A stretch of 64,000 nt of DNA. It comes from Laetiporus sulphureus 93-53 (taxonomy: Eukaryota; Basidiomycota; Agaricomycetes; Polyporales; Laetiporaceae). The notes under the pieces were generated by a model. The model ran no database searches. It saw only the letters and a list, made by a program, of their open reading frames with translations, and was not told where the DNA came from. The stretch spans positions 1-64,000 of the forward strand of contig NW_024468589.1 in assembly GCF_001632365.1 (NCBI RefSeq), in the 5' to 3' direction. Position numbers and translations under genes: made by a program. Every line of letters begins with the position of its first letter. Positions within the stretch are counted from its first letter, which is position 1. Below, one piece after another: positions 11,653-60,181 of the stretch.

Positions 11653-11837
11653 TAATCACCTATTTTATGAGGCCTACAATGGCCATCACCTCCTCTTATG
11701 CATGATAAGGCTAGGGGCCCTTTGAGCCACTTTTTACCTCATATCATCATACACCACAGGCAATGAGTTATAGGATGCAGGCAGCATCTTGCTGCCAGTC
11801 CCTTGCCTTCAGGCAGGGATCACAATGTGCTATGACA
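11653..11837 (+). repeat. 5'-truncated LTR of the older family A element
   Basis: The sequence from about AATCACCTATTTTATGAGGC to GTGCTATGACA matches the end of the 3' LTR at 18253-18908 nearly base for base. The front three quarters of the LTR are missing. Confidence 0.65.
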
Positions 11838-13420: not shown

Positions 13421-13440
13421 TTACCCCCCCTCAAGGCTCA
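13421..13440 (-). other. Polypurine tract of the young family A element
   Basis: The minus strand reads GAGCCTTGAGGGGGGGTAA up to the LTR. The same GAGCCTTGA(G/A)(A/G)GGGGG arrangement precedes the 3' LTRs of elements 2 and 3, so this second-strand primer region is shared by both families. Confidence 0.65.
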
Positions 13441-13929
13441 TCGTCCTGAGGAGCCATAGTAAACCTGAGTTTTATAGGCTTTGGGTGGTGTTGTAGCAAA
13501 AGTGTGTAACAGTTTAGTAGACATGTTTAGGTCTTTGGGCACTCAAAGCTGCCAATAAATGCCTTTATGCTTCTGATTCCTTATAGGTGATTGACTTATG
13601 GTTCAACTCGTTGTTGCCTTATATCTTCTCCCTTTGTAGAACCAGGCTTGTAGGCAAAACAGTTTTAACGACGTTATTTAGATCGCAATGCTTGCAGTTT
13701 AATGACTTGCACTCGGTCATATAAGTCTGCGACGGTGGTGCACCCGAGGCATTGCCACAGACTTGGTGGTGCTCAAAGCTGCCAAAATTTAAAAAGTTAA
13801 CATTTTTAGGTCTTGTTATGACCCTTCGATACCATCCCATTAAGTATCGAATTTCTGTCTTCAGTCATGACCTCATGCTTCTGTGCTATGGCTGCCGTAT
13901 TAGGGTTTTCTGCCTGGCAAATTTGGCCC

Positions 13930-14030
13930 CCCTCCAGAATCGAACCAACGCACAAACACATTTTACGCCGAAACTGGAAGGTTGCTTGCCAGGACTTTTA
14001 TCCTCTAAGCCACTTGAGCGGCTGAGATTC
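13930..14030 (-). repeat. tRNA-derived SINE-like sequence
   Basis: The minus strand carries a box A-like TGGCTTAGAGGA (complement of 14001-14012) and, about 60 nt downstream, a box B-like GGTTCGATTCT (complement of 13936-13946), the internal RNA polymerase III promoter of tRNA genes. No complete cloverleaf could be drawn. It is best read as a SINE head or tRNA relic. Confidence 0.4.
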
Positions 14031-14186
14031 TTGGTTCGAAACTCAATATGTATCCGCTTTTATTACATAATCTATATTTATGTAATCATGTGGCAAAGAG
14101 AGGTGGTGTGGGAAGGTAGCGTAGGAGGTATGTCGAAAAAGTGAACAGTTTAATGACATGTTAAGGTCCATTGGTTTGTGCCTTAT

Positions 14187-14282
14187 AACGCACCAGTGGC
14201 TTAGTGGCAATTAAGCCAGGGGGTTTGGATTTAGACGCCGGTTGGCATACCGGGCACTGGTTCGAATCCCACTTAGTGCGTT
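14187..14282 (+). repeat. tRNA-like sequence or SINE head with box A and box B
   Basis: Box A-like TGGCTTAGTGG lies at 14197-14207 and a perfect box B GGTTCGAATCC at 14259-14269. AACGCAC (14187-14193) pairs with GTGCGTT (14276-14282) like an acceptor stem, and TGGC/GCCA can form a D stem. The T stem has mismatches and no clean anticodon arm was found, so this is probably a tRNA-derived element rather than a working tRNA gene. No T run follows immediately. Confidence 0.4.
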
Positions 14283-16218
14283 TAAAGTTGAGGTATTTCA
14301 TAATCGGAGACGAGCTTCAGCTCAGAGTTGATGGCCGAGGAAGGGTGAAAGGGGTCCCCGCGTATCTCAACTTTTGCCTCCATGGTAATGTGTCACGTGC
14401 ATGAATAATTGAAGGGATGATGCATTTTTTAATTTGATCGATTGATCGTGATCGAATAAGATAGACCTTTTGATCGATCCTGATTGAGTGTGATCCGTGA
14501 TCGCCTTGATCTGTGATCCATTGAATGACATCATACATTGGCACTCATAAGCTGCCTAGTGGTGCAGTTTCACTGACATGCCCAGGTCCATGATGGCGCT
14601 CAAAGCTGCCTAGTTATTCCTGGCTGCTCTCGGTCTAAGAGTCTGATGCTTCATTGCAAGTTTTCTGCACAGTAATTGTGAGAAATTGCCAGATGTTGTA
14701 ATCTTATTGCCAGAAGAGGTATCACCAACTCCTTTTGTGGTCTTGTAGTGTAAAGTAAATGTCAAGTCGCCATTTCTTTGTGTTAGAAAATGGTGCTTTG
14801 ATGCAATGGGTTTTCCAGGCCCTTGCTGGTAGCAATAGTCTCTTTTTGCTCTATATTGACATTACTTTTTTGGCGAAAAATTGCTGCGCTGCGCTTTACT
14901 TGTTTAATTAGGGCTTGGCTTTGCCAGCCCTTCGGGGATGGGGACGGGGATGGACGTCGCTTCGTCAATGCCACTGGAAAGGACCCACAGACTACGTTGC
15001 AGGTCTCCATTGGACAGTTCCTTGCTTGTGTGTTGCACGTTGCCTACACACGTTGTAGCCCTTCATTTCCCTCTGGGCTATATCCCCTCTTACCCACCCC
15101 TCTGCTGGCCTCGTCCTGAGTGCCAAGCGCATAGCCTGAACTGTGCCCCGGGTGCGAAGTGCACAGCTAAAATAATAAGAATTGTGGTGCACAAAATAAG
15201 GGAGGGTGGGTGAGAGTAAAATTTTCATTCTACCAAGTTGGAATTAATGTGGTAAATGAAGTCCATTTGACAGAAATCACAGTGTATGCGCTGTTTTTGA
15301 TGTGATTCTGAGACTAATCAATGGCAGTGGGTTCCCCCCGTCCTGGTGCTATTCTCCCTTTTGGTGAAATCTTTTTCTGGGTGTCCTTGTAAATTATTTG
15401 TTGGGTCTTAATTCCGCCCACAGTTAATAGTCGCGTAGATCATCGTGCACTTGGATGCCGTCAACAAATTATTACTTTGTAATTTTTGTTCTAGACTTGT
15501 TATCCCAGGAAGTGTTTCGTAGGTGTAGTAATAATGGTGGTTGACCAAACCATCCATGTATGTGCTGAGGTCTCACATCTTGTATGTAGAACGTCGTGCA
15601 CAAGGTCTTATGTTTCACCAGTAATGGGAACTGCCTGTTTTTTGGTATGCAAGTGTCCTTTATAGGTCGTGTGAATTTGCCTTTTTAGGGCTTGCATGGT
15701 AGTGGTAATATATATGTATATGCGAATGATTTGCGCTGTCCAAATACTTGTAATAATGCTTTATTATTTTATATATTGGTGTGCCTTTCGCATTTTCGCA
15801 TTTTGTATATTCGCTATGTAGGATACCAGTCTACTTAGCGTACTAATTGTGTATATATTACCCACCCCTCTGACTCCTTAGAAACATCGTAGTTTCTTGG
15901 CTGTTCGCCCTCATGGAGGTGCGAAGGAAGCGTTACCTGCACTGTTACCTTATTGAAGGCAGGGAGCGGCTTATGGTGAGGTAGAAGTTGATGATGGGGA
16001 ACAATGTGGAAAAAGGTGTGCCCTACACCTGAATTTCTTGGGCATGAAAATACCAGTCCCGCATTGGGTACTCTGGCAATCAAATGGACAGTTTTTATGG
16101 ACATTGTCTAGGTCCAAAAAGCCAGTCCCTCAAAGGGTACTTTGGCTGTAAATGCGCCTGGTCCGCATAGGATCCCAAGATCGCCCTGCCAGCAGCACAT
16201 TGCTGAGGGCAGTATAGA

Positions 16219-16228
16219 GTTCTATTCA
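16219..16228 (-). other. Self-complementary primer-binding site of the family A element
   Basis: Two bases beyond the 5' LTR the minus strand reads TGAATAGAAC. Its exact complement GTTCTATTCA occurs within the same LTR on the minus strand (16420 to 16411), about 35 bases downstream of a TATATATATA (16446-16455), that is, at the expected RNA start. This is the layout of Tf1-type self-primed retrotransposons. It is an inference from pairing and spacing. Confidence 0.55.
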
Positions 16229-16230
16229 AA

Positions 16231-16979
16231 TGTCACGGCACATTGTGATCCCTACCCGAAGGTGAGGGACTGGCATCAGGTGATGCCTGCGTCCTGTGAC
16301 CCATCACCTGTGGTGGATGGTATTATGAAGCAAAAGGGGGCTCAAAGGGCCCCTAGCCTTATCACACATAGAAATGAGGGTGATGGCCGTTGTAGGCCTC
16401 ATAAGATAGGTGAATAGAACTGGGGATACCCAGTTCCTCATAGGTATATATATACATGTAGTTAGGACCCCTGGCACATATGCTACTGTGAGACCTCTGG
16501 TACCTACATGTGAACATAATGCCAGAACCAGTAATGGTTCTGGTCTCGCCATGACAACTATCTACAAATGGCCGTGAGATAACCAATGAGATAATTATAT
16601 AACATGGTGCCACTTTGTGAGCGGCTGAAGTGGTGTCACTATTGAGTGACCCAATGGTGTTGGTCCTATTGGATGTAGCCAATAGGGTAGACGGTCTGCT
16701 ATCTGTCATATAGCGATTATAGCCTAAAGGTATAAGCCCCTTTTTTTTTCTGTGACCGGGTGGTCAGATCGGGCACTCCGATGGTCCTGTGGTAGGCACT
16801 GTCAAGTGCGCGAGGTATCTGGCATTAACTTGTGACAGATTCCAGTATCCACTTGAATAGGCCAATATGAAGGTGGGCGCTTCCGTATCCAGTTATCGGT
16901 TGACTTATGTAGGACTTGTGTCATGAAAGTAAATATGTCTGGGTAAAACCGTGATAGCTGTCTGGGTAAAACCGTGACA
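16231..16979 (-). repeat. 5' LTR of the young family A element, with duplicated outer end
   Basis: It matches 12694-13420 closely. Its outer end carries an extra 23 bases: the terminal block GTCTGGGTAAAACCGTGA appears twice in a row (16938-16955 and 16961-16978). The target duplication GCCAC adjoins the outer copy. A short T run (16741-16749) also differs from the partner LTR. Confidence 0.75.
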
Positions 16980-18252
16980 GCCACGTGATTTCTGTCAAAT
17001 GGACTTTATTTACCACATTATTCCAACTAAGTATAATGCAAATTTCACTCCCACCTGCCCACCCTTATTTTGTGCAACATAAATCTTATTATCCATGCGA
17101 TGGCTTGATCTCAGGACAAGGCCAATGGAGGGTGGGCTAATAGGGGATATAACCTGGAGGGAAATGAAGGATTACAACGTGTGTAAGTGACACACAACAC
17201 ACAAGCAAGGAACTGTCCAATGGAGACCTGCAGCATAGACTGTGGGTCCTTTTCAGTGGTGGTGACGAAGTGATGCACATCCCCATCCCCATTCCCAAAG
17301 GGCTGGTGAAGCAAAGCCTTATTTAAACAAGCAAAGTGCAGCGCAGCAATTTTTCACCAAAAGTAATGTCAATATGGAGCAAAAAAAGACTATTGCTACC
17401 AGCAAGGGCCTGGAAAACCCATTGCATCAAGGCACCATTTTCTAACACAAGAAATGGCAAACCTGACAATTACTATAACTACAAGACCACAAAAGGAAAT
17501 GGTAATACCTTTTTGGGCAATACAATTACCATATATGACAATTTCTCACAATTACTGTGCAGAAAACTTGCAATGAAGCATCAGACCCTTCAACCAAGGG
17601 CAGCCGGGAACATGACCATGCTTCACAAAAGCATATGGTACATATACGACCTGGGCAAGTCATTAAACTATACTACTAGGCAGCTATGAGCACCACATGA
17701 CCTGAATAATGTCAATAAACTATTTTGCATACAAGCCCACTTCTATAAAGGGAGAAGGTACAAGGCAACAATGAGTTGAACTATAAGCCACTCACCTATA
17801 AAGAAGATGGAAGCATAGATGCATATGGACCTGAGGACATCCATGAAACTCACTCGACATTCGCTGGCCACCTACAAGACTGACATCATAAAGGAACAAG
17901 CACAGCCACCAGAACGGATCACTATCACAGATCACAGATCACGATCAATCAGGAACGTCAATGTTGACACCGATTATGATCAATCGGAAAAGTCAATCCA
18001 GACACCAATCACGAATCATGGCAGAACCAACACAGTGGTACTGTCCCATACCAACATTGTCACTTACAAGAATGTTATCCAAGTACCTGAGCACATACTT
18101 CAAACTGCATCAACTGGCAGCTATAAGCATCCAAGGACCTAAGCATGTCCATTAAACTGTTACACATGTCACTACACTGCCCACATACTTGCCAATCTAC
18201 AAACACCCAAAATTCTGATGTTCACCCAGAGTTTGAACCTGAGGGGGGGTGA

Positions 18253-18908
18253 TGTCATGGTTTTCTCACTACAACATACCTCTCACATCATGCAAGGGTA
18301 TAAACCTTAGACATGACACAAGGCAAGATGTCACAACAAGCCACTGACGATCAACTACAGAAGCGCCCAAGTCACGTGACCTAGATGAGCACCCACACAA
18401 GTGCCCCTAGCATGTGACCCACAACTAGTGCCCAACCACAATTGCCAAAGCCCTCAAAGCTCAGCTACCACATGTAACATCGAGGCACCTTACTAAGTAG
18501 CAGACATCCTATTGGCTCATGGAGCAATGGAGCTCTGTGTAGTATTACATAACATGCAACTACCCTAGCGCATGACGGCCATTACAGCCCTTGTAGATAG
18601 TTGCCATGGTTTCATACCAACTAGTGTACATGTAGTAGTAGTAGGGACTCCAGTAGATAGATTACCAGGGGTCCACCCCTACGTGTATATATATGCCTAT
18701 GCAGAACTGGGTATCCCCAGTTCCAATCACCTATTTTATGAGGCCTACAATGGCCATCACCTCCTCTTATGCATGATAAGGCTAGGGGCCCTTTGAGCCA
18801 CCTTTTACCTCATATCATCATCTACCACAGGCAATGAGTCATAGGATGCAGGCAGCATCTTGCTGCCAGTCCCTCGCCTTGGGGCAGAGATCACAATGCA
18901 TCATAACA
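18253..18908 (+). repeat. 3' LTR of the older family A element
   Basis: It starts TGTCATGGTTTTCTC directly after a purine tract and ends GCATCATAACA. TATATATGCC near 18685, then GGGTATCCCCAGTTCCAATC, marks the promoter and start region shared with the younger LTRs. The first third has diverged strongly from the younger copies. Confidence 0.7.
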
Positions 18909-29320: not shown

Positions 29321-29996
29321 TGTTACAGATTTTCACCACAAAGTCCACACGTGACTTTACCCACACCACAGATCACGTGCTTCACCAATATCTCATGCCA
29401 CCCAGCCACAGACGCGATGCGTAGAGATCAGGTAATAGTCTACATCACATATTATGGTCCAGACCCACAGATGATATGGTCGGACCTGTTTATTCCAGGA
29501 TACAATAGAGGCACCCATTTGGAAACAAAGGGAACAAGGACTATTGTTAGGGATTGTCTAGGCAATCGGCTCAAGGAATAGCCATTACCATGATAGGATG
29601 GATTGTCTCATCATTGTTACGGATGAAGACAGATCTTCTCACCTATTGTTCTACTTACGGATGGATCTTCCCACTCATTGTTCTGTGTATAGCTTAGTTG
29701 CATAGGTACGTGGATAGCCAATAGCATGTCTCATAGTAGTCAGCACCTGTACACATATATAAAGACCAGCATGTAGAGGATGAAACTTCAAATTGTTTTT
29801 CCTTGTCTACCACTGTAGCAACCACTGAGCTTACCAGCTCCATCATATATTTATCACCTTTCCATACACTTGCTACACAGCTAGTAAGTGTTAGGCTCTT
29901 TAGCCACTTTAGGGATCAGGAGGATCAGGATGGCACATTCCATGTAACCGCTCCTTTTTTAGTCTTTTTGATCTCTTGTCCAGCGTCGCTGTGACA
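29321..29996 (+). repeat. 5' LTR of element 2
   Basis: It begins TGTTACAGATTTTC and ends GTCGCTGTGACA. A TATA box (CATATATAAAG) at about 29754-29764 lies some 30 bases before CTTCAAATTGTTTTTCC, the predicted RNA start. The leader starts TTAGAAACAATCTAAC, complementary to that region as found in the 3' LTR. Confidence 0.85.
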
Positions 29997-46267: not shown

Positions 46268-46702
46268 TGTCACAGATTTTTGCCACAAAGTCTGCATGTG
46301 ACTTTACCCACACCACAGATCACGTGCTTCACCAATATCTCATGCCACCCAGCCACAGACGCATGCGTAGACATCAGGTGATAGTTCACATCACATGTTA
46401 TGGTCCAGACCCACAGATGATATGGTCGGACCTGTCTATTCCAGGATACAATAGAGGCACCCATTTGGGAACAAAGGGAATAAGGACTATTGTTAGGGAT
46501 CATCTAGGCAATCAGCTCAAGGAATAGCCGTTACCATGATAGGATGGATCGTCTCACCATTGTTACGGATGAAGACAGATCTTCTCACCTATTGTTCTAC
46601 TTACAGATGGATCTTTCTATGCATTGTTCTGTGTATAGCTTAGTTGCATAGATATGTAGATAGCCAATAGCATGTCTCATAGTAGTCAGCACCTATACAC
46701 GT
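46268..46702 (+). repeat. 3' LTR of element 2, first part
   Basis: It starts TGTCACAGATTTTTGCC right after the polypurine tract and runs to the ACGT (46699-46702) where element 4 inserted. The remainder is 59942-60181. Confidence 0.85.
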
Positions 46703-48084
46703 TAATGCATCCGTGGAGCTCCTGGCTTCGTGCTACTCCAACACTAATCTGGGGTCCACTGTGTAGGGTGTATGTGGGGGACGACTTTGGCGAGGGTTTG
46801 CTGTGAGCTGGTTTAGTGACTTGAAGCTACTGGCAATAGAGATGGGTAATGGGTTGGTAATGGACTGGGGTAGTATGCAGGTGCAGCCAACAATCGCAAG
46901 ATTGGCAAATGACGGTGTGGGCAGCCAATATCGAGCCTTGGGAAAGGAACTAGAGTTGTGTGAAAAGGAAAGGCTGTATTTGGAAGGGGCTCCAAGCGTG
47001 GGACCATCGAACTTGATTGCAAATGTGTTTTGATCGCAGCGAGGTGGAGCGGAGCTGACCGTATATGAGATGCTGATCGGAGGATGGCGGGGAAGCTCGG
47101 TTAAGTCCGATGTGCGAAGATCCTTGGGCCAACTACTATATTTGGGATGAAACCCATGGTCTAAGGCTAGAAATGGCCTGGAGCTGATCGGAAGTGCGAT
47201 ATTGTCACAAGAAGGCAGGTCGGACCTGATCGTATATGCATTTCTGATCGGAGGGTGTCGGAGCGCTGGTGTCTAAGCCAATGAGAGCGAGGCCTCAGAC
47301 AGGTTCTGAGGAGTCCTGGAAACATAGGGCTGAAAGGGGTAACTGAGTGATGTAGCATGGGAGTGTGTTGGAATATCTTCGGTTGCTAGGTGGGCTGGGC
47401 CTGATGATGTAATGATGATGAAGTGTGCTGTGATTGGTGCTGGGACTTAGCTGAAACTGTGAGAATGTGCCTAGTGACCATAGCTAAGGCAATAGAAAAG
47501 AGCTGATGGCCAAGAGACGAAGTGCTAAGATGTACGCTGTGGGCTAGGAGACTCGAGCTCCTCCCAATTTGATTGTTTTGGTATGTACATGTGGTAGGCT
47601 TATATACCGCCCTAGCAGGCCACCGCCGAGAGTTTGCCTGCTTGGGTGATTAAACTAGGTATGGTAAAAGAAAGACTGAAACGAGTAAGATATTAGCTGA
47701 AACTTGCAACATAATTGTATTCCTGTTTGAGATACCGGACCAGACCGTTAACACGTATCAAAACACGTTTCACCCATGCTGACTTGGCTGGGCAGTCTTC
47801 ACGCATCTTCGCCATGATGGCGGTCCTTTGCCCCAGTCTTCTGGGTGCCTACTGCCTGATGCCATTGCTACCGCTAAGTCCACTGAGCCTTCTTGCGTTC
47901 AGAAGTGTCGGCATAGCTTTAGGATGGCCGAGCCTTCCCACGATGCTTTATTTCCGCTGCCTCGTGGTGAATGACTTCCACGGTGGCAATAGCATGGACT
48001 GGCTCGTCACCTTGCCGGCCTAACTTTGCCAAAATCAGGGTCATTCTCGTGCTTCTGTCGGTTAGCCACTCTCGCCATGCATCA
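46703..48084 (-). repeat. 3' LTR of element 4
   Basis: Plus-strand start TAATGCATCC (expected TGATGC..) and end CCATGCATCA. Against 58556-59937 nearly all differences seen by eye are transitions, many at CpG/TpG/CpA. Confidence 0.85.
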
Positions 48085-48098
48085 CCTCCTTCCCACTA
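48085..48098 (-). other. Polypurine tract of element 4
   Basis: The minus strand reads ATAGTGGGAAGGAGG up to the LTR. This fixes the orientation of the element and shows that the antisense cassette lies inside it, between pol and the 3' LTR. Confidence 0.65.
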
Positions 48099-48181
48099 TC
48101 CTTGAACCATCCTCGGTCCCCACCAAGACTTAAATTTCCGCAGCTTGCCCTTGCCTCCGCCAGTTCCTTTGCTTTTCCACC

Positions 48182-49633
48182 ATGTCGCTCATCCCCCCTC
48201 CTCGCCTTCTTGGTCCGTTCGTATCCGTCGCCGACACATCTGCCCTTGGTGATACTGTGCTGCGATGCATCTGTCAACTTGATGCATTAGCTGTCCATCC
48301 TCCACGTGCTGAGGCCCCCTTTGCCGAGTGGGAGGCCTGGTGCCACGAGTTAGCTGGGTCCTATGTGCATCGCTATGTCATTGCTTTCCTTTTGCCTTAC
48401 TAATCTGAGTAATGGGTAGGCAATGCTGGGCAGCCTTCGTATGCCCGCAATCCGAGATGTCTGGCTTTCTGTGCTGGATTGGGTAGGGGTGACTGCCAAT
48501 CCTGCCTGGTCCACACTTTGGGGTGACTTCATTCCGGCTGGCTTCCTATTCACCTCACTTGGTGTTCGCTCTACTGCCGGCACCATGCTGTCGCTTCCAC
48601 AGGCTCACTCGCGCTTCGAGGACATTATCAACGTGATCCTTGCTGGTACTCTTACCTGCAAGAAGGCGCAGGTGCAGGTGGCTAGCCAGCTGCTGACCTT
48701 TACCGCAAACTGCACTATTGTTGACTGTCGTGACCCATCATTTCTTGGCTTCACCCATCCGCTCCTTGTTGGCTGGGACGCGGCTTTGTCTGCATTAACC
48801 GCATCGCTTTTCATGCCTTTTCCTGTTGCTCTTCCCTCTCTAGCCGCCACTGCTCCGAGCATTCCTGTGGAGAAGACCCACATTGCCGACACCCCAATGC
48901 AAGAAGACTTTAACCTAATTAAGGTGTCGCGGGACCAGGTTGAGAGCGAGCGTGAGTTCAACACTACTGTTGAGGGGGTGAAGTCTGCCAAGGAGGCGCG
49001 AGGCCTTAAATGTCCCTCGGAGGAGTCCATGCCTGGACCTTCCCCTCGTGTGTGCGTGGAAGGGGCTCAAGCCTTCCTCGACTACCTCGATAACATAGGC
49101 GGAATGTCCATCTGGCAGTATTACGCACAGTTTGGCAAACTGTGGGGTATCACTCATATGAGTAGTTCGACCTTTGCCGTGCTGGTCCGCTGCTGACTCG
49201 CTCTAGTGTACGTCGTGCAAGGATGAGAGTTCCTGCATCGTGATGCCTCCTGGCAAGGCTTGTCTGTGCTGCTGTATGAGCAAAAAGGGGTGTTCATTGA
49301 ATACGAACATGGGCGTGGGGCTTCCTGCGGTGCTTTGCCAGTTTGGTACATTATTATCGACACGACGCTTGCACTGGCTGACTTTCTTTCACAGTTGACC
49401 TGCACACCATGCTAACCACGATCCAAGGTGGCTTCAACACGTCCGCTATTCCTCCCGCTGCCCTTGGAGAGATTGCAGATCGTGAACGCATCCGGCTTGC
49501 ATGTGACATGCAGCTGACCTATGCCTGGTTCCTGGAGCCGGAGTCTTTGGCGATCAATACCAAGACCCTGGGTGGGCCCGTTGCAGCGGTGTTGTCTCCT
49601 GTCACCTCTGGTAGCACCGAACCCATCCTTTAG
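48182..49633 (+). CDS. Antisense gene A in element 4: spliced, Cys-cluster protein of unknown function
   Basis: ATG at 48182 (MSLIPPPRLLGPFVSVADTS). An intron at 48365-48419 (55 nt, CTAAT branch site, TAG) joins in frame to AMLGSLRMPAIRDVWLSVLD. A long open exon follows with a hydrophobic/Ala-rich centre and a charged segment. A cysteine cluster (CTSCKDESSCIVMPPGKAC, then CCMSKKGC; 49207-49290) resembles the CxxC..C..PGK.C..C...K..C clusters of Agaricomycete hypothetical proteins. A 49-nt intron (49346-49394, GTACAT..CTGAC..CAG) joins in frame to the last exon, DLHTMLTTIQGG to STEPIL. A frame change between 49150 and 49206 is unresolved: a frameshift or an unseen intron. It is transcribed opposite to the element's gag-pol. 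Function unknown; nucleic-acid or zinc binding is only suggested. Confidence 0.6.
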
Positions 49634-49950
49634 CTCTGCCGTAGCCCTGCCATAGTGGCGCGAGTTGGCCGTATGCCAAAATGGCGTTTGTACTGGTAGC
49701 TAGTTGTCCTTTTATTGCCTGCTTGTCTGTCATTGGCCTTGTACAAATATATCGTGTTACTGCCATGTCTCTTGCATATAGAGGCCTGAATGTGCCTTGC
49801 CCAATTGGCTAGACCATGCCGTGGTCAACCCTTCCTGAATGACTTATTCTTTGCGTGATCCTCTTGCCATTTCGAACTCCGCTACTCAGCCTGCATAACT
49901 GGGTGTGGATTGGCATGCCCGTCCTTCACCTCATTCGCCTTTCATCCATC

Positions 49951-51969
49951 ATGACCACCCCTTCTCCTCTGAGTCCTCCAACAGCTGCTCCGTCACCTGT
50001 TGCTGTCGATACCCCCACGTTGGATTCCTCTATGACTGTTACTTCCGATCCTGCACTTGTGGCACCTTCGAAGACCATCGTGGCCCCCAAAGTTCCTCCC
50101 TTAGAGACTTTGGCCAGTGCCCTCTTTGACCGTATTCAAGACCTTTGCAGTAGCCATTCATTCAATGCTGCCGCTCGTGACACAGCAGGCCAGCAGTTGC
50201 TGGGTTCAATGGTACACCCTTCCTTTCTGTCACCTGCTATCCTGGCTCAGCGGAGCTGCCAGCATGTACTGCACGAGACTCCCGAAGGCCCTCTTTGCCT
50301 AGAACCCTTCCAAAAGGTCATTCAGTCAATTGCAGACCGTGTCTCTACTTCGGGCTGACTAAAGTGGGACATGGAGTTGTTGTCCGAGGGCCGCAAAGAG
50401 GCCCTGATGCAAGAGCTTGCGATGGTGCGCCTGACCGCATTTGGATTTTCCCTCATTTACTGATTCTCATTAGGTCGATTCTGAGCCCGAGGAGGCTCCG
50501 TGAAGTGCCCAATGCCAAGGACACCAGCAAGTTCATCGTTCATGAATGCCGTTTGAGGCAGATATCGTCGAGGAGATTGTCGACGGACCCCCTACTTCCC
50601 CAGAGTCTATTCCTGCAGATGACAAGATGGTTGACGCTGACGAGCCCCAGATGGATGAGTTGGAGGGTGAGAATGAGGTGGATCCTCCATCTCCGAAGCA
50701 GGTTAAACCTGGTACATCCTTCGTTATCCCCCGCCCTTTGCTATGCCTGACTTGGGTGATTATCCAGCACCTTCGATGGCCAAAACCCCTTCGTCTAAAA
50801 CTCTTGTCGACACTCACCTTCACAATGTTACCGTGGATGCCATCGACTCTTAGGGCATGATACATCTTAAGAACAGCATGCTCATCTCCCAGAACCAGGT
50901 GCTGCAGAGCTGACCCTCCTATCGCGACCGCTCCTTGTCTCCTGACTTTCTCCCTCGGTGGCGCGCACCGCAAAGCCACTGCTTGGTACTCCATTATGCC
51001 TTTCTCTGACTGGCCCAACTGATTTGCCTTCTAGTGCCTTCACTGCTTCTGCCATGTCGAAGAGCTGTTACATGACGGAGCTTGAACCCATCTGCCGCAA
51101 GTGCGTGCATTCCAAGTCGAAGTGCCATTTCTGGGCCTGAAAGGGCATTCCCAATCTGCAAGACTTGAAGGGTTGGCTGCCCCTTCATGACTTCTATGAG
51201 CTTCAGGGCTGGCCCTCGCCAGATGAGCCTTCTCCAGAGGAGCTGCATGAGAGTCGCACGGCGTTCAGAGACTACGATGAACAAATCCGTGCCCTCAACA
51301 AGCACGGCGTAGGCGTAAAAGGTGCTATGGAGGAGCAGAAGGCCTTCCGCGAGGGCCGACATGTACCTCGTTGTATTGTTCTGATGCACGGCAAGCCGCC
51401 CGTACTCGGGGAGTTACCTGCCCATGGCCAGCTCTCCTTCCTTGTTGCTGATGCGGTCGTAGCCCCGACTGTCTCCTCCTCAACTGCTGGACCTTCCGCA
51501 TCCACTAGCATTGCCTTTGGTCTTCCGGAGGTGGAGGAGGTTAAGCCCTTGACCACTAAGGCAGGTTGTGGTGTAAAGCGCTCGGGCTCTATGGAGGGTG
51601 AGCTCGATGCTCCTCCTGCTCGTCGTTCACATCGTGCTCTATATAACGCTCAGTCCAAAGCATCGTCGTCTGGTGCGTCCGTTAAGAAGGAGGTCAAGGA
51701 GGAAGTCAAGGAAGAAGTCAAGTCCGAGCTGGAAGACATCAAGCCCGCCTCATCCTCTCACTCCATGCCTGCCAGACGTGCCACTGCTACACCCTCTGGT
51801 GAGGTTCCGTTCGTCTCCGTCCCTCCAGCTCCATCCCCAACTCATGCTTCATCAGTTACGTGATCGGCAGCTGCTTCTGCCTCATCCAATTTTGTGGAAT
51901 TTGCCGGTGTCATGGTCAACCAGGACATGCTGTCTGATGCCATTGCCAACCTGTTTCGTAAGAAGTGAG
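49951..51969 (+). pseudogene. Antisense gene B in element 4: Cys-cluster and Lys/Glu-rich protein of unknown function
   Basis: It begins MTTPSPLSPPTAAPSPVAVD at 49951, a Pro/Ser/Val-rich head, then a compact region LASALFDRIQDLCSSHSFNA to VIQSIADRVSTSG (stop at 50358). An acidic segment follows in another frame (VEEIVDGPPTSPESIP, DELEGENEVDPPSP). From about 51034 one frame reads ICRKCVHSKSKCHFWA, then KGIPNLQDLKGWLPLHDFYE and a long tail with repeated KEEVKEEVKSELE, ending NLFRKK at 51969. TGA codons at 51138 and 51861 interrupt this frame and fit CGA to TGA. It converges with the end of pol (52165). Like gene A it has a CxxC..C cluster. Function unknown. Confidence 0.55.
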
Positions 51970-52164
51970 AGTGATTGCATGCTGGAGTCCATTGCGCTGT
52001 GCCTCGTGGTTACTTGCATTAGCCTGCCATGTCATTGTACAATGTAGTCTGCTTGTTCTGAATATAGTTGCTGCTCCGCATTAGTGTGCCCGTAAATCCT
52101 TTAAGAAAATGAGATGAGAGTGATCTGTAACAATATTCACAGTGGCCGATACACAAGAGCATGG

Positions 52165-55100
52165 CCAATTAGTCCTCTTCTTCCTCTTCTGACCCTTGCC
52201 CTGCTAAATCCTTACTTTCCCCTTCTCCAGGCTCTTCTTCTTCTTCCTCCAGGTTCCCGGATTCTTCTGCTTCTTTCATCTCATCTAGCCACTTCTGAGA
52301 GACATCCAATACTTCTTCTGGTACCGATATCTGCTTGCGCGCAATGAATGGTATTACTCAGAAGGCTGCCACTGGCCTGTCCAAGACTGCTCCATCGAGT
52401 TCTGCTAGTACGTAAGCCCCACCTCAGTTGCGTAGAATTACCACATAGGGTCCAATGTATCTGGGCCGCATCTTGCAATTGAGAGATTTCTCAATTTTCA
52501 TGTGTCGGACCAGTACCAAGTCTCTGCGGCTAAAGTCGAAATCGCAGATCTTTGCGGAATGGTCCCTTTCGAACTTTTGTGCAGCTTCCCTTCTAGCTCC
52601 GTAGACGGCGTTATGAATCTTCTCTACTTGCTCTCGACGCTTCTGTAAGGCTTCAGCCCATCGCGCGATCAGCTCCGTGGTAGATATCATCGAAGTTGGT
52701 GGTGGTAGGAGGTAAGTGGCTTCAACTATGTCCATTGGTAGGATTGGCTGCATTCCTGTGACTGCAAAGTACGGCGAGCACCCCATGCGACGCCTTGTAG
52801 TAATTCTTTCGGACCAAAATACAGAGTGCACTACTTGGCTCCAGCAGTGTTCTTTGCCATCTGCAGCCTTAAACAGGCCTTGTCATACATCAAAGTGAGG
52901 CCTTTCAACTATTCCATTGGCTCGTGAGTTGTAACCGCTGATCTGAATGTGATTGACGTGGTACTTTTTGGATAGATGAGCTGCAGCTTTGACGAAAGGT
53001 GCACCATTATCTGTCACGAGCTCCGAGAGTGCACCCCATCGACAAAGTATGTCCTCGAAGATCCAGTCTGCCAGGGCCTTAGCTAATGCATGTGAAATTC
53101 TGGGTAGTGCATAAGAGAACAACGCCCTTGTACAATGTACTTGAACCTGTTGCTGGACGACATGTGCATTGTGTCGATGTAAATTTTGGCAAATACTGAT
53201 GCCGGACTCATGACGATTGGCGAAATCGAAATCTGCCATACTTGTCTTTGCTGGCAGAGCAGGCAGCTATGCACAAACCATGCTATGTCTGCTCCAATAT
53301 CCGGCCACCAAAATCATTCTCGGACCAGAGCCTTGGTCGCAAAGATTCCTCAGTGCCCTAAGTCATCATGCGAGGCTTGCAAGATGGCCATTTGCTGCTC
53401 TGGCCATACGACGACCCTATGCACCCCTTGTGAATCCTTTCGCCATAACTTGCATTCTCGAATAAAGAAATGTACCGCATAGCGTACGACCTTCTCGTAT
53501 TCTTTGTCTGTCCAACTGGCAGGTCTTTGCATATCTCCCAGCCCTTGGTAGACATGTTTGACTAGTAGGTCTGACTTCGTGGCTCATTCAGATCGTGGAA
53601 CATTACTATAGCCATCCGATGGGCTCGAATCTGTGGTGGGTATAGCCGGGTCGGAGCTGGTCTGAACTTGTGTGGAAGACACAAAAATCAGCCATAAAGT
53701 GCTGCGTATATCCTCCCCACTAAAATACTGACTATCCCCAGTCAGAAGTGTGTGCGTGAGTGGATGAGAGGAACTGAGTAAGACGCAGTGCATAAAACCG
53801 TGAAGTCGGTCGATCCAGTCTTTGAAGCCATCATCGTCCTCAGTAGGCGGCAAATCATCGGGCTGGACTGACCTCCGAGATAAGCCATCTGGACCATGTT
53901 TAATGCTGGGGATGTGGACCAGCTTAAAGTGGAACAGTAGAATGGACATGATCCACCTGTTAATGCTTGCGCTGGGGGCGAGATCTGGGTTTTGAAGCAT
54001 TCCCTTGATGTATCTGGCATCAACTTCGATGATGAGGTTTCGGACACCAATCAGATACATCTTCAGAGCATGCAGCATGCGATACAGTCCATAAAGCTCA
54101 AGCTTGGGTTGAGAGAATCGACCTTCGTGAGCATTAAGCGTGATAGACCCAAAGCGATTGTAGTAGCGCTTCTTTGGGTCTTCCTCTGAGCATTGGCACA
54201 ATTGGTACCCAACCGCTATCATGGACATGTCAACGGCTAAAATAACTGGTGCATCCGAGGAGCAGTTGATTGCTCACAACGCAGGAGACTGCAAGAGAGC
54301 CTCTTTGAGATCTGCCATGGCCTGGAGTTGATCCTGGCCAAACTCGAATGGTACACCTTTTCACATAAGTTGGACCAGCACATGCGCACATTTGGCAAAG
54401 TTCTTAATAAAGATCCTTGCCACACCAATAGTGCCTAGAAATGCTCGGACTTCTGATAGGTCTTTGCAAGGTCCCCAATTGCACACCGCTGCAACACATG
54501 ATTCATCTGGGAGTCGTCCTTCTGGTGTGCATCGGTGGCCAACAACCATAATCTCCGGGCTGCACAGCGCTAACTTTGTCCCCGAGAATGTGCCGCCCAC
54601 GTACTCCATGTGTTGTACTATGCAGTTGAGGTTCTGAAAATGCTCCCAGATGAATCTGCGTATGCCGGAGTTCTCTGGAATTGTCTCGAACATCCCATCT
54701 GACTGCTTGTACTGCGAGGCTGGCCCCTTGACTGGCACATCATCGATGTAGGGCACAGTAAACTCTGGGATCTCTGATTGAAGAATGTACGTGATGTCAT
54801 CATGAAAGATTGGAACTGAGTTCGTCCAGCCCATTGGCAAGGTTATAAGTCGGAGTGCGCCGAAGGGGGTCTGAAATGTTGTGAGGTCTTGGGAGGATTC
54901 TGCAATTAGCCGTTCATCATAGCCGATGTATAAATCCAGCATTGCCCCACATGCGCATCCTCTGAATTGTTCGGTGAGGTGCTCTGGGGTTGGGGTAACT
55001 CCGAATTGTTATGGCATTAAGTGGTTCTAGGCTGTGGACCAAATGCAAGGATTTGTCATCCTTCTTGACCACACAGAACCAGCGTGATCTGTACGAGCTG

Positions 55101-55216
55101 TTTGAGGGCTCGTAGACTCCTGCGTCTATCTTCCGTCTGATCACCGCACAAAGTTCTCGATAAATTCCTGGGGGTATTGGAATGTTGCACTGAACCCAGG
55201 GCTTGTGTGGAACCAC
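52165..55216 (-). pseudogene. Element 4 reverse transcriptase, RNase H and integrase
   Basis: RT: VYEPSNSSYRSRWFCVVKKD, FQTPFGALRLITLPMGWTNS, PYIDDVPVKGP (YIDD box at about 54750), VAAVCNWGPCKDLSEVRAFL. RNase H: QPKLELYGLYRMLHALKMYL (Glu), LIIEVDARYIKGML (Asp), LVHIPSIKHGPDGLSRR (final Asp). Integrase: a zinc-binding remnant with LLCQQRQVWQIS, core IYIDTMHM, LVTDNGAPFVKAAAHLSK, NSRANGIVERPHFDV, then a GPY-type end RPRYIGPYVVILRN. After a stop, an AYVLAELDGAVLDRPVAAF tail and an acidic Glu-rich terminus end near 52165. Several stops are present. Confidence 0.75.
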
Positions 55217-55906
55217 TGGAAAGTCAATTGGCAGAAAGTACTCAGTGTGAAAGCTGCCTCACTCTAAGTCATCCCATGCGAAGGCCCTGTTGTGAAGACA
55301 CATAAATGTATGCAAGAGTGCTCACTCGTCTGGCCATAGAAATCCTCCTGAATGTGTGGTCCAGGGCCATCTTGTGTTCTAGCGAGTATCTGCTGGTGGG
55401 CGTAAACTGTGGTGGATGCGTAGGTAGTTGTGATAACATGGCTAGCAGGTCACCCATGATGGAACGTATGATTCTGAAAGATTCTGGTACCATGGTAAGA
55501 ACTGGTTGAGTCTTGAGTGCAACGGGCTTGTACTTCTTCTTGGTAGCTGCGAAGCTTGCTGACGGAGGTTTGCCTGATTCGTGGTGATTGGCAGACGTGG
55601 GTGTATCAAAGGATAGAGTCAAGATTAAAGCTTGTGTATGCGAGGCTTGTAACGTAGAGATGTGAGGCGAATCTTGGCAATAAAGTGAATCGAGAGCTTG
55701 TACAAATTGTGTGGATGCTTGCAAATATCTGATTGGAATAGCGGTAGGGTCAGAGGGTGTGATCTAGGTATATGTGATGATTTCTGGCTGGAGCTGGGCA
55801 TTCGCTTCGATAACTAGGGCCAAACTGTCACTTGGGTTGTCTATACCCTCCGCTAATGAAAACCCGACTGGTCCATGTCCTTAGGTCGGTGAAACCGTGG
55901 AGGTCC

Positions 55907-56317
55907 TCAGCATATGGTTGGAATAGTCGTGACTTGGCCTGAGTTTGGGCAAACTATCGTGACCGTCTGATCTTCATTGAAGAAGTTCCTAACCACGCTC
56001 TTGGTTAGAACATCAAAGGGTCTTCCAAGTAGGATATCGTAGGCAGCAGTGCAGATAACGTGAATCTGCAAATAAAGCACTATGTTGCCAACTTGGAAGG
56101 GAATATTGCACACTAGTCCCAATGATTGGTCGACTTCTCCATTAGCTGATTGCATATTCAGCTTGACTGTTGGGTTGTAGATGAGCCCCAATGCATGGCA
56201 GACATCTTCCGACATTGCCACTATCTGACACCCCGGATCTAGGATCGCTTCTACCCGCTCTTTGTTATCCACCAAAGCTATGATGGAATGAAGCGAATGA
56301 GAATCCTTAGCCACCAC
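55907..56317 (-). CDS. Element 4 aspartic protease with DPGC active site
   Basis: VEAILDPGCQIVAMSEDVCH replaces the usual D(T/S)G(S/A) with D-P-G-C. The C-terminal block AYDILLGRPFDVLTKSVVRN is a normal retropepsin ILLGRP. The frame is open over about 136 codons. To my knowledge a DPGS form is common in this basidiomycete gypsy lineage, so Pro is probably native and Cys may be a change. Confidence 0.65.
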   Translation of the reverse strand: MVAKDSHSLHSIIALVDNKERVEAILDPGCQIVAMSEDVCHALGLIYNPTVKLNMQSANGEVDQSLGLVCNIPFQVGNIVLYLQIHVICTAAYDILLGRPFDVLTKSVVRNFFNEDQTVTIVCPNSGQVTTIPTIC

Positions 56318-56448
56318 CAGCTGTTCTGGGTCTCCATGCTGGTGTATGTGTCACAGATACGTGTCATAAGGATCTGGGACGATCAAACCATGGGGCTGCA
56401 ATGGTTCGCCGTGATACGAGAGTTCGCCAATCTGCGCCGTGGTCCCGT

Positions 56449-58490
56449 TCATGAAGGTCTCTTCATCAGCTTCCCTATCACTAACATAGAAGTCCCTGTA
56501 CTTGGTGGATTGACTCTCCTTGGCGTGCAAGCTTCTCGGTATTTGTTGCGAACATCCGCTGAAATCGACAGTAATTCCTTGAGTGAGATAGCTATCATGG
56601 GATTTTTCATAGATCTCTTAAAAATGTCATCAGAGAGCTGCGGCTGATAGACTGGGGTGGTAGTACGATAGGCCGGGTCTCTGTTCTGAGGTCTCGGTGC
56701 GCCCGAGGCAAAGTTACACGTGGATGGTGGCACATAGGTAGCATCCCTGGCTGCACGATAGGGATGTTCTGGCTCCTTGTCTGCTTCCGGCGTAGTGGCT
56801 GTAGGCTGTAACGTAGATGATGTGGTTGATAAAGCAGCTGTAGGCACTGTACTCATAGTGGGCTGTGTCTGCGTGACTGGTTGGCTAACTGACATGGGCG
56901 GAGATTGACGAGTGTTTGCATTCGATTTGCGCGGAGGCATGTATACTCCATCGAATACTTGCTTTGTCTTGCACAACGAGTATAACTCTTGTTCTAAGGC
57001 ATGAATGCGGTTGTCGGCCCCCAAGGCAAAGGTGCTATGCTCCTGAGGGGAGACTTCAAATAAGTTTGTGGCTGAGATCGACGCCTGCGTCTGTGCAGTG
57101 GACTGATTTCTCCTATGCCATTCGTAGATTCAGTCACGAATGGTTATACCCAGAATGATACGTGGGATGAAGGATCCGTTCAGCAAGACCACCTTCCCGG
57201 CAGAGTTTTGCATACACTTGCCGGACTTTATGTCCTCCTCTACATGCTTGCAGGTGCCTATCATGCCCCCTGCTTCGCCACAATAGTGACAATAGCCCAT
57301 GCTGTTGCCTCCACTACTTGTAGTTGGCTTTGGCACTGCGCTAGCTTGTATGCCATTCCCCTTTGGCACAACTCCAGTCACCGCTGCTGTCAACATTTGC
57401 ACAGACTTGACTAGGCTCTCGATGAGTAGTGAGATGTCCTCTGTCTTAATCGCAGGTTCTGACTCTGACTTCACTTTGCTGCTACCGGCGACTGCTGGTG
57501 AGGGCGAAGTTCCATGAAGGACAAACTTTGCCACTTCGTAGATCTCGTTGACATCGTATGGATCATCGGGATAGTGGTCCGGCTGCTTTAGCTGAAGTCG
57601 CTGTGATATCTGACTCCATAGGTCTGGCAGGAATTCTCGTGCAAATGCCCGGTTGCGCTCAGAATACGAAATGCGATGTTTGCCTATGAGGAACGTAGTA
57701 ATTACCAAGAATTCACGATGGTAGGCTCCAAGTTCCGCAATGCTATGGATTCCCAGCCTTGCTCGCTCCCCAATGAGCATGTCCATATCTCGGACCTCCT
57801 ACTTGCGCTCCATATCTGCGCCAGGGTACAGTCACTGTACTGCTACTTTGAGATCTTGGACGTGCGCTGGACATCTGAATATTCTTCCAAGCTTTCGATG
57901 AGGTCTGCTACGTCGATAGTGAGGTATCGGCAAACCCAGCGTTTCCTTTCTGTTTTATCCGTGATATTGCAACGGGCAAATAAGATTTCCAAATTGTCAA
58001 AGAATCGCAGAAGTGTGCGCGGATGCTCTGGATCGAACGTAGGGGCTGTGCGATCCCCTCTAAATGGCATTTGGCTGACGGTTGTAATTGTAGCTGCCAT
58101 CGTGTACTGGGTATGGTGTGTAGGTGGCAAACTTTGAATGCGAGCTTCTGCCTCTTGAATCTCGTCTAGAAGTGAATGTCCTTTGGAGATAAAGTCGTCT
58201 AAACCTAAACTTGGTTCTGACGCAATGGACGAGGGCTGATGGATGCTAGAAACGTTCGAGGATACTGGAGATAGTGGACTTGATTGTCTGGAGTTGGACG
58301 GTGCTGGACTGGCTGTCCGAGAGTTTGCCACTGTGGCTGGAAAGTGTTCCCTCGGATCATAATCTGCAAGATACTCGTGTCCTTCATCTGTGCGCTCAAA
58401 TCCTGTTCTCTGATACTTCTGTAGCCTCCTGAGTCTCTCATTGAAGGAAGTAAAAACTTCTTCTGACATTTCGGATATGGCTGCGAGCAT
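56449..58490 (-). pseudogene. Element 4 gag
   Basis: It starts MLAAISEMSEEVFTSFNERL. A Ser/Pro-rich segment is followed by capsid-type PFRGDRTAPTFDPEHPRTLL, RFFDNLEILFARCNITDKTE and KRWVCRYLTIDVADLIESLE. After a frame change near 57843 the capsid continues (LGAYHREFLVITTFLIGKHR, FAREFLPDLWSQISQRLQLK). A zinc-knuckle remnant reads CHYCGEAGGMIGTCKHVEED, where the His of CCHC is Gly. A further part (57024-56449) has a Thr/Pro-rich linker and NPMIAISLKELLSISADVRN, which normally precedes the protease. Confidence 0.7.
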
Positions 58491-58533
58491 TTGCCAACAA
58501 CGTCAATGATTTCTAAACCTTCAATTCTTCAAC

Positions 58534-58555: not shown

Positions 58556-59937
58556 TGATGCGTCCATGGAGCTCCTGGCCTCGTGCTACTCCAACACTAA
58601 TTCAGGGTCCGCTGTGTGGGGTGTATGTGGGGGGCGACTTTGGCGAGGGTTTGCTGTGAGCTGGTTTAGTGACTTGAAGCTACTGGCAATAGGGATGGGT
58701 AATGGGTTGGTAATGGACTGGGGTAGTGTGCAGGTGCGGCCAACAATCGTAAGATTGGCAAATGATGGTGTGGGCAGCCAATATCGAGCCTTGGAAAAGG
58801 AACTAGGGTTGTGTGGGAAGGAAAGGCTGTATTTGAAAGGGGCTCCAAGCATGGGATTGTCGGACTTGATCGCAAATGTGTTTTGATCGCAGCGAGGTGG
58901 AGCGGAGCTGACCGTATATGAGATGCTGATCGGAGGATGGCAGGGAAGCTCGGTTAAGTCCGATGTGCGAAGATCCTTGGGCCAACTACTATATTTGGGA
59001 TAAAACCCATGGTCTAAGGCTAGAAATGGCCCGGAGCTGATCAGAAGTGCGATATTGTCGCAAGAAGGCAGGTCGGACCTGATCGTATATGTGTTTCTGA
59101 TCGGAGGGCGTCGGAGCGCCGGTGTCTAAGCCAATGAGAGCGAGGCCTCAGACAGGTTCTGAGGAGTCCTGGAAATGTAGGGCTGAAAGGGGTAACTGAG
59201 TGATGTAGCATGGGAGTGTGTTGAAATATCTTCGGTTGCTAGGTGGGCTGGGCCTGATGATATAATAATGACGAAGTGCACTGTGATTGGTGCTGGGACT
59301 TAGCTGAAACTGTGAGAATGTGCCTAGTGACCGTAGCTAAGGCAATAGAAAAGAGCTGCTGGCCAAGAGATGAAGTGCTGAGATGTAGGCTGTGGGCTAG
59401 GAGACTCGAGCTCCTCCCAATTCGATTGTTTTAGTATGTACATGTGGTAGGCTTATATACCGCCCTAGCAGGCCACCACCGAGAGTTTGCCTGCTTGGGT
59501 GATTAAACTAGGTATGGTAAAAGAAAGACTGAAACGAGTAAGATATTAGCTGAAACTTGCAACGTAATTGTGTTCCTGTTTGAAATACCGGACCAGACCG
59601 TTAACACATATCAGAACATGTTTCACCCATGCTGACTTGGCTGGGCAGTCTTCGCACATCTTTGCCATGATGGCAGTCCTTTGCCCTGGTCTTCTGGGTG
59701 CCTACTGCCTGATGCTGTTGCTACCGCTAAGTCCACCGAGCCTTCTTGCATTCGGAAGTGTCAGCGTAGCTTCAGGATGGCCGAGCCTTCCCACGATGCT
59801 TTATTTCCACTGCCTCGTGGTGAATGACTCCCACGGTGGCAATAGCACGGACCGGCTCGTCGCCTTGCTGGCCTAACTTTGCCAAAATCGGGGTCATTCT
59901 CGTGCTTCTGTCAGTCAGCCGCTCTCGCCATGCATCA
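58556..59937 (-). repeat. 5' LTR of element 4
   Basis: Plus-strand ends are TGATGCGTCC and CCATGCATCA, and the length equals 46703-48084. A minus-strand TATATAAGCC (about 59451-59460) is a likely TATA box. ACGT follows at 59938-59941. Confidence 0.85.
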
Positions 59938-60181
59938 ACGTATATAAAGATTAGCATGTAGAGGACGAAACTTCAGATTGTTTCTCCTCATCTACCACTG
60001 TAGCGACCACTAAGCTTACTAGCTCCATCATATATCTATCACCTTTCCATACACTTGCTACACAGCTAGTAAGTGTTAGGCTCTTTAGCCACTTTAGGGA
60101 TCAGGGGGATCAGGACGGCACATTCTACGTGACCGCTCCTTTTTTAGTCTTTTTGATCTCTTGTTCAGCATCGCTGTGACA
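59938..60181 (+). repeat. 3' LTR of element 2, second part
   Basis: After the duplicated ACGT it continues with TATATAAAG, the predicted RNA start CTTCAGATTGTTTCTCC, and the LTR end GCATCGCTGTGACA. CAACT at 60182-60186 is the right target duplication of element 2. Confidence 0.85.

What the first reader, a model, noticed from the sequence alone, without database searches (positions are those of the whole stretch)
48085..52165. Antisense cassette of two spliced genes between pol and the 3' LTR of a gypsy element
Seen: element 4 is bounded by equal 1382-bp LTRs and an ACGT duplication, with gag-pol on the minus strand and a polypurine tract at 48085. Between pol and that tract lie 4 kb whose coding signal is on the plus strand. 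Gene A has introns with branch sites and in-frame joins (48365-48419, 49346-49394), and both genes carry a cysteine cluster. Known: some plant gypsy elements (for example Grande and RIRE2) carry antisense extra frames. Inference: this fungal element has captured or evolved a convergent antisense module, perhaps to regulate gag-pol by antisense transcription or to act on chromatin. Introns in that orientation survive retrotransposition, because the genomic RNA is their antisense.
Basis: partly seen in the sequence, partly recalled or inferred. Interest (0 to 1): 0.88.

Follow-up and report, generated by a model that had tools for sequence, protein, structure and literature searches.

The report
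Antisense gene pair in fungal retrotransposon
A family of jumping genes in the wood-rotting mushroom Laetiporus sulphureus carries, on the strand opposite its own replication genes, two extra intron-containing protein genes that natural selection has kept, probably to regulate the element, which makes a poorly understood kind of retrotransposon gene directly testable.

Summary
Confirmed and extended. The window lies in Laetiporus sulphureus 93-53. Element 4 has 1382-bp LTRs (94.2% identical), ACGT duplications, broken gag-pol on the minus strand, and a plus-strand cassette of two genes between pol and the 3' LTR. It is no chance insertion: of 45 loci matching the integrase C-terminal piece, 32 are at least 52% identical to it, and 25 of those 32 have gene B 1.0-2.0 kb beyond, 25 of 25 antisense. 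Two more carry partial or diverged cassettes; a close copy, C77, lacks it. Cassette frames show dN/dS 0.17-0.37 (integrase 0.08-0.18), lowest of six frames in 10 of 10 comparisons. Gene A's start lies 97 bp from the inner 3' LTR end in two diverged families. Both genes have six-cysteine clusters resembling, but not passing as, Zn2Cys6 domains. Best reading: a spliced antisense accessory module, read from the 3' LTR side, encoding nucleic-acid-binding regulators. Antisense extra ORFs are known in plants and in fungal Boty (brtn), so this is a new variant. Expression and function are untested.

The parts
46699..46702 (.). target-site duplication ACGT, left
46703..48084 (-). 3' LTR of element 4 (element strand minus), 1382 bp
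48085..48094 (-). polypurine tract (complement CCTCCTTCCC)
48107..48119 (+). leader core CC.TCCTCGGTC between LTR and gene A, once in the window over both strands; candidate promoter or regulator site (function inferred)
48182..48364 (+). gene A exon 1 (61 aa); 97 bp lie between the LTR end and its ATG
48365..48419 (+). gene A intron 1 (GT..AG, in-frame join)
48420..49157 (+). gene A exon 2
49158..49206 (+). gene A intron 2, phase 0, placed by relatives; donor degraded in this copy
49207..49345 (+). gene A exon 3; six-cysteine cluster C-x2-C-x5-C-x8-C-x2-C-x6-C at 49207-49293
49346..49394 (+). gene A intron 3 (same in public model P0001)
49395..49633 (+). gene A exon 4 and stop
49951..51968 (+). 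gene B, broken in this copy (Pro/Ser-rich N-terminus, acidic middle, Cys cluster, VKKE motif)
51035..51125 (+). gene B cysteine-cluster exon start (acceptor TAG 51032-51034); four in-frame Cys here, six in relatives
51141..51860 (+). gene B conserved block and C-terminal part
52169..53266 (-). C-terminal part of pol, read as integrase (position after RNase H; sub-threshold SH3_Tf2-1; core motif read by eye), convergent with gene B
53584..58502 (-). rest of gag-pol, broken: RNase H 53584-54273, RT 54361-55008, protease 55907-56350
58556..59937 (-). 5' LTR, 1382 bp
59938..59941 (.). target-site duplication ACGT, right

Best explanation
The 4 kb is an old, conserved accessory module of a group of Ty3/Gypsy-like elements in Laetiporus sulphureus: two spliced protein genes (A nearest the 3' LTR, then B) on the strand opposite gag-pol. 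Shown: place, orientation, purifying selection on the cassette frames, conserved introns and Cys clusters. Inferred: antisense transcription starts in or just inside the 3' LTR (97 bp lie between LTR and gene A's ATG), the host splices the transcript, and the two proteins bind nucleic acid through their six-Cys clusters and regulate the element (its LTR transcription, or the fate of its RNA or cDNA). Also inferred: the genomic RNA is the complement, so splicing of the antisense mRNA never removes the introns from the RNA that is reverse transcribed, and they persist.
For: 25 of 32 integrase loci at 52% identity or more have gene B on the 3' side, 25 of 25 antisense; match-to-match distance 1.0-1.2 kb in 24 and 2.0 kb in one (hits). 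C1 and C47 add a partial and a diverged cassette. dN/dS with 95% bootstrap interval: A 0.17 (0.10-0.24), B 0.28 (0.16-0.41) for C80-C59; A 0.19, B 0.17 for C5-C56; 0.20 and 0.20 for C5-C105; 0.37 and 0.34 for C2-C56; 0.37 and 0.28 for C105-C2; true frame lowest of six in 10 of 10. Gene A intron 2 at the same place in 10 of 10 elements inspected, GT..AG in 7. Intron acceptor directly before the gene B Cys exon in C5, C51, C56 and C2. Six gene A Cys invariant in four families. LTR-to-ATG distance 97 bp in the window and in C5, whose LTR is shown by a second copy 12.6 kb away.
Against: No RNA data. Most copies read here have broken frames, so no expressed protein is shown. No Pfam hit passes its cut-off; Zn_clus (PF00172) on C5 gene A has E 0.015. 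AlphaFold mean pLDDT 39, no fold. C77 (integrase piece 89% identical) lacks the cassette, so a copy can exist without it. Transition-rich decay (78 ti: 2 tv between the LTRs) inflates NG86 dS; only the six-frame control guards against it, and the antisense frame sharing third positions comes close (0.24-0.52). Co-divergence with pol is not clean: cassette dS is about twice integrase dS in C80-C59 (1.35 and 1.38 against 0.69) and C5-C56 (1.43 and 1.22 against 0.67), though equal in C2-C56, and integrase does not separate C2/C56/C105 from C5/C51 while the cassette does: recombination between elements is possible.
Confidence: 0.6

Rival explanations
1. The antisense RNA itself, not the proteins, is selected: it pairs with gag-pol RNA or feeds siRNA silencing and limits copy number.
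For: Antisense position; gene B (51968) and pol (52169) end 200 bp apart and converge. The idea is raised for plant antisense ORFs (PMC7264820, passage).
Against: Codon-level constraint in the cassette frames, conserved introns and Cys codons point to proteins. The annotated genes do not overlap pol.
Confidence: 0.12
2. The two proteins help a step of retrotransposition rather than transcription: nucleic-acid chaperones or nuclear-import factors of the pre-integration complex.
For: Cys clusters of both genes. Accessory and import roles are discussed for plant antisense ORFs (PMC7264820 section 7).
Against: The six-Cys layout resembles a zinc cluster more than a CCHC knuckle (recalled), and opposite-strand expression would separate the proteins from gag-pol. 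Neither is decisive.
Confidence: 0.25
3. Host genes captured by the element as passengers, without function for it.
For: Two-gene block with introns, as a genomic capture would leave; one close copy without it; cassette synonymous divergence differs from that of integrase in two of three pairs.
Against: Same place and orientation in 25 of 25 loci and dN/dS 0.17-0.37. No host donor seen in the searches made; nine cassette hits are unpaired with an integrase.
Confidence: 0.05
4. Insertion of unrelated DNA into this copy only.
For: None found.
Against: Cassette also in C3, C59 and many diverged elements.
Confidence: 0.01

Closest known systems
Plant Ty3/Gypsy elements with antisense ORFs between pol and 3' LTR (Grande gene23, RIRE2, Retand, PvRetro13)
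   Same: Position, orientation, presence in most copies, conservation; nuclear or DNA-binding proteins suspected (PMC7264820 sections 5 and 7 read, other passages seen; PMC11963269 abstract and passages seen)
   Different: Fungal host; two genes; conserved introns; six-Cys clusters instead of TRP28 or SMC domains. The word 'intron' has 0 occurrences in either main text; 'splic' has 5 in PMC7264820.
Boty / BcGypsy1 of Botrytis cinerea with antisense gene brtn
   Same: Fungal element with an antisense extra gene (Zhao et al. 2011, not read; seen only as cited in PMC7264820 and PMC8365987)
   Different: Ascomycete, one named gene. Its sequence was not held, so homology with A or B, and introns in it, were not tested.
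HTLV-1 HBZ (analogy only; mostly recalled)
   Same: Antisense accessory gene near the 3' LTR, nuclear regulator (passage in PMC11963269); HTLV antisense promoter inside the 3' LTR (passage in PMC7264820); spliced (recalled)
   Different: Retrovirus, bZIP protein, no relation claimed; antisense promoter and nuclear role not shown here
Fungal Zn2Cys6 zinc-cluster transcription factors (PF00172)
   Same: Six Cys with C-x2-C ... C-x2-C-x6-C; gene B adds an acidic stretch, a V/I-K-x-E motif and in C5-type elements a possible C-terminal coiled coil (read by eye)
   Different: First half C-x5-C (gene A) or C-x8/9-C (gene B) where Zn2Cys6 has C-x6-C (recalled); Pfam score below cut-off

Membership tests
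LTR retrotransposons with antisense extra ORF between pol and 3' LTR (aORF-3R) | extra coding region between pol and 3' LTR | tested here: met
LTR retrotransposons with antisense extra ORF between pol and 3' LTR (aORF-3R) | antisense to gag-pol | tested here: met
   25 of 25 gene B loci paired with an integrase piece
LTR retrotransposons with antisense extra ORF between pol and 3' LTR (aORF-3R) | present in most copies and conserved like element proteins | tested here: met
   25 of 32 loci plus two partial; dN/dS 0.17-0.37, somewhat higher than integrase
LTR retrotransposons with antisense extra ORF between pol and 3' LTR (aORF-3R) | own antisense promoter and transcript | not testable with these tools
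   no RNA data; only the 97-bp LTR-to-ATG distance
Boty brtn | sequence homology to brtn | not tested
   brtn sequence not held
Zn2Cys6 zinc cluster (PF00172) | score above Pfam gathering cut-off | tested here: not met
   C5 gene A exon 15.8 bits against 21, E 0.015; no hit on gene B exons of C56 or C5
Zn2Cys6 zinc cluster (PF00172) | six cysteines in C-x2-C-x6-C-xn-C-x2-C-x6-C spacing (recalled) | tested here: not met
   six Cys present, but x5 (A) and x8-9 (B) in the first half
LTR retrotransposon, Ty3/Gypsy type | LTRs, TSD and PPT | tested here: met
LTR retrotransposon, Ty3/Gypsy type | protease, RT, RNase H, then integrase in pol | tested here: inconclusive
   protease and RNase H pass Pfam cut-offs; RT is below the Pfam cut-off but matches retroviral RTs and Ty3-G in the PDB, best E 2.1e-8, Ty3-G 0.0065; the piece after RNase H gives only sub-threshold SH3_Tf2-1 in the window, C5 and C2 (E 0.027, 0.0095, 0.0053) and no PDB hit; no RT tree built
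Chromovirus | chromodomain at integrase C-terminus | tested here: inconclusive
   no chromodomain hit in the pieces scanned; the tail beyond them was not scanned

The most novel reading that the evidence does not exclude
A mushroom retrotransposon carries an ambisense regulatory circuit: the 3' LTR drives a spliced antisense transcript for two related zinc-cluster proteins (A and B, perhaps old tandem paralogues, each with an intron right before its Cys cluster) that bind the element's own LTR or leader (core CC.TCCTCGGTC) and control gag-pol. The introns make the proteins expressible only from integrated DNA, never from the genomic RNA strand, so they report integrated copy number.
Probability: 0.25. 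Interest if true: 0.82.

Novelty: new variant of a known kind. Interest (0 to 1): 0.62.

Why it matters
Antisense extra ORFs in LTR retrotransposons are described as of unknown function (PMC7264820). Here a 38.6-Mb fungal genome offers about 27 diverged elements with a two-gene, intron-bearing version whose coding constraint is measurable, so expression, binding partner and copy-number effect can be tested. The conserved introns also show how a retroelement can keep spliced genes through repeated reverse transcription.

Tried and rejected
Chance insertion: rejected. Homologues elsewhere: a gene A exon and a gene A profile gave only Laetiporus sulphureus 93-53 proteins plus one unnamed relative, P0002, 62% identical on a 1043-bp contig (one search scored only the 7999 candidates sharing most words); a gene B piece gave none. 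That search needs shared 5-residue words and limits length, so wider occurrence in fungi is not excluded. Viral-contig scan with gene B: 31 pattern hits, no relative. Plasmid scan with 48085-49700: none. PDB search with the gene B and gene A cluster exons: two weak unrelated hits and none. NCBIfam on P0001, P0003 and a gene B exon: none. AlphaFold of gene A (P0003, 7 rows): mean pLDDT 39, so no fold search was run. Nine literature searches showed Boty brtn as the only fungal antisense extra gene in what I saw; I read listings and passages, and subscription journals are mostly not held.

Loci without a detected cassette among the 32: C77 (window 48180-52191, to within some 35 bases, missing), C46:322771 (2294 of 2601 fetched bases masked), C24:60610 (none in the 2.6 kb fetched; an LTR, leader and gene A lie 11 kb further on in the expected orientation; same element not proven), C113:1599 (no hit, flank not read), C56:84169 (short fragment). 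C1 and C47 have no gene B hit but cassette hits. Of 25 integrase loci with a gene A hit within 9 kb, 22 are antisense on the 3' side, two same-strand (the nearest hit also pairs with a neighbouring element) and one on the 5' side. Unpaired: gene B at C39, C69; gene A at C18, C19, C20, C35 (two), C9, C94; C19 and one C35 locus lie beside LTR matches. Left out: weak gene B hits C16:383192 (E 0.0049) and C59:183163 (E 0.0028), and small gene A fragments beside listed ones. The tool calls all such counts lower bounds.
Full report
What was checked. The window is contig C80:1-64000 of a 38.6-Mb assembly. P0001, the public gene model of gene A (100% identical over 96% of the exon-2 query), names the source: LAESUDRAFT_718099 of Laetiporus sulphureus 93-53. 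The contig lengths given for P0004, P0005 and P0006 equal those of C3, C5 and C51. The LTRs are 46703-48084 and 58556-59937 with ACGT duplications. Over 1380 aligned columns they differ by 78 transitions and 2 transversions, 38 of the transitions in a CpG of one copy. The copy has thus decayed by a deamination-like process, and LTR distance is a poor clock. gag-pol on the minus strand is broken. Its protease and RNase H pass Pfam cut-offs, RT matches retroviral and Ty3 RTs in the PDB, and the piece called integrase rests on its place after RNase H, a sub-threshold SH3_Tf2-1 match and a core motif read by eye.

The cassette in this copy. Gene A starts at 48182; 97 bp lie between the LTR end and its ATG. 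Exon 1 joins exon 2 in frame over intron 48365-48419. The intron at 49346-49394 agrees with P0001. It ends at the first codon of the cysteine cluster. The public model appears to use a 22-base intron there, which is implausibly short (inferred). Gene B runs from 49951 to 51968 and is broken in this copy.

Relatives in the genome. DNA search found a second copy with the cassette at C3 (90%), a 72% relative at C59, a truncated match at C2 and a short match at C77. In C77 the LTR and leader are followed directly by the pol end: bases corresponding to window 48180-52191 are absent, to within some 35 bases. Protein searches widened this; the tool calls its counts lower bounds. The integrase piece 52424-52882 matched 50 places, merged to 45 loci. 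A gene B exon from C56 matched 28 places, and three gene A queries 11, 19 and 29. Pairing them: 32 loci have 52% identity or more to the window's integrase piece (a cut by identity, not a tree); 25 of the 32 have gene B within 2 kb on the 3' side, and 25 of 25 are antisense, 24 of them 1.0-1.2 kb away. C1 carries gene A and the end of gene B, C47 a diverged gene B, both antisense. None of the 13 loci at 42% identity or less has a gene B hit, but with only two gene B queries (window, C56) a diverged one could be missed.

Selection. NG86 was run on same-frame aligned blocks, with the same blocks read in six frames as control. Gene A gave 0.17, 0.19, 0.20, 0.37, 0.37 and gene B 0.28, 0.17, 0.20, 0.34, 0.28 for C80-C59, C5-C56, C5-C105, C2-C56, C105-C2. 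Every upper 95% bootstrap limit is at or below 0.56, and the true frame is lowest in 10 of 10; the nearest rival frame, the antisense one sharing third positions, gives 0.24-0.52. Integrase gave 0.15, 0.08 and 0.18 in the three pairs measured. Two recent pairs (C80-C3, C5-C51), looked at only, give higher values in many blocks, as decaying copies should. NG86 is biased by the transition excess, and blocks were found by protein similarity; both act on all six frames.

A result against simple co-divergence. Cassette dS is about twice integrase dS in C80-C59 and C5-C56, though equal in C2-C56. Identities of integrase and cassette co-vary (rho 0.90 for gene A, 15 pairs of six elements; 0.74 for gene B, 28 pairs of eight; pairs not independent), and both set {C80,C3,C59} apart and pair C5 with C51, but integrase does not separate {C2,C56,C105} from {C5,C51} while the cassette does. 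Between those groups integrase keeps 54-85% identity, gene B 26-67%, gene A exon 2 21-53%. So the cassette evolves faster than integrase, and exchange of segments between elements cannot be excluded.

Introns and signals. Gene A intron 2 was found at the same place in 10 of 10 elements inspected (C80, C3, C59, C5, C51, C2, C56, C105, C94, C1); 7 of 10 have GT..AG, and C80 (donor), C59 (acceptor) and C5 (GC donor) depart. Intron 1 has GT donors at the homologous place in C80, C5, C51, C56, C105 and C94; C3, C59 and C2 were not resolved by that script. Gene B has an intron end (GCTAAC, then TAG) directly before its Cys exon in C5, C51 and C56, and an AG in C2. For C5 the second LTR copy, and most other LTR matches, end 97 bp before gene A's ATG (the C5 partner's match runs two bases further), as in the window. 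The leader core CC.TCCTCGGTC of the window is recognisable by eye in most of eight aligned elements, least in C51, and occurs once in the window over both strands.

Proteins. Gene A's cluster is C-x2-C-x5-C-x8..14-C-x2-C-x6-C, complete in 6 of 11 elements scanned. Gene B's is C-x2-C-x8/9-C-x8-C-x2-C-x6-C, complete in 5 of 11. Ten of 11 have at least one, none occurs on the opposite strand; the patterns were written after seeing the sequences, and not every stretch covers both genes. A V/I-K-K/Q-E motif lies in the gene B C-terminal part of 8 of 9 elements scanned (C1 not). That this resembles a SUMO-type motif, and the cluster Zn2Cys6, is recalled; Pfam does not accept the cluster.

How it most likely works. 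The proteins, not just the antisense RNA, are under selection. With 97 bp between LTR and ATG, the promoter most likely lies in the 3' LTR or that leader; this is inference from anatomy. Splicing of the antisense transcript would not touch the genomic RNA, which explains intron survival. The Cys clusters, and gene B's acidic stretch and possible coiled coil, suggest nucleic-acid-binding regulators of the element. A role inside the particle or in nuclear import is the main rival.

Known work. [quoted passage not shown] PMC11963269, passages; PMC8365987, passages). The main text held of the 2011 survey of fungal LTR elements has no occurrence of 'antisense' (PMC3248453, passages). The searches listed under Tried and rejected showed me no basidiomycete case. 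This is therefore a new variant of a known kind: two spliced, Cys-cluster antisense genes as a trait of a whole group of elements in a mushroom.

Noticed in passing
window 46703-48084 vs 58556-59937: LTR differences are 78 transitions to 2 transversions, 38 of the transitions in CpG context; TGA is the commonest stop inside the integrase copies. Looks like methylation- or RIP-like deamination of repeats in this polypore.
   Followed up: partly
window 46268-46700 and 59938-60181: Element 4 is nested in another repeat: its two flanks match 29321-29754 and 29753-29996, a continuous stretch elsewhere in the window.
   Followed up: no
L005/L014, G000:C77:79001-88064: A close copy without the cassette, junction within a few bases of gene A's start codon; further LTR copies nearby. 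Whether the cassette-less form ever multiplied was not tested.
   Followed up: partly
L031/L033, G000:C39:52405-56089: A gene B relative (56% to the window's over 94 residues) with no related integrase found, next to a long plus-strand frame of unknown kind; could be another element type or an exapted gene.
   Followed up: no
L025, L026 (G000:C20 start and C94 end): Two near-identical gene A copies at contig ends, far diverged from the window's; the C94 copy has six complete cysteines.
   Followed up: partly
genes A and B, elements C5, C51, C56, C2: Both genes have an intron end directly before a Cys-cluster exon, suggesting old tandem paralogues.
   Followed up: no
Synonymous divergence of the cassette is about twice that of integrase in two of three element pairs; recombination between elements or a rate difference would explain it.
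   Followed up: partly
window 10311-18898: Interleaved direct and inverted repeats of 79-98% identity, probably nested elements.
   Followed up: no
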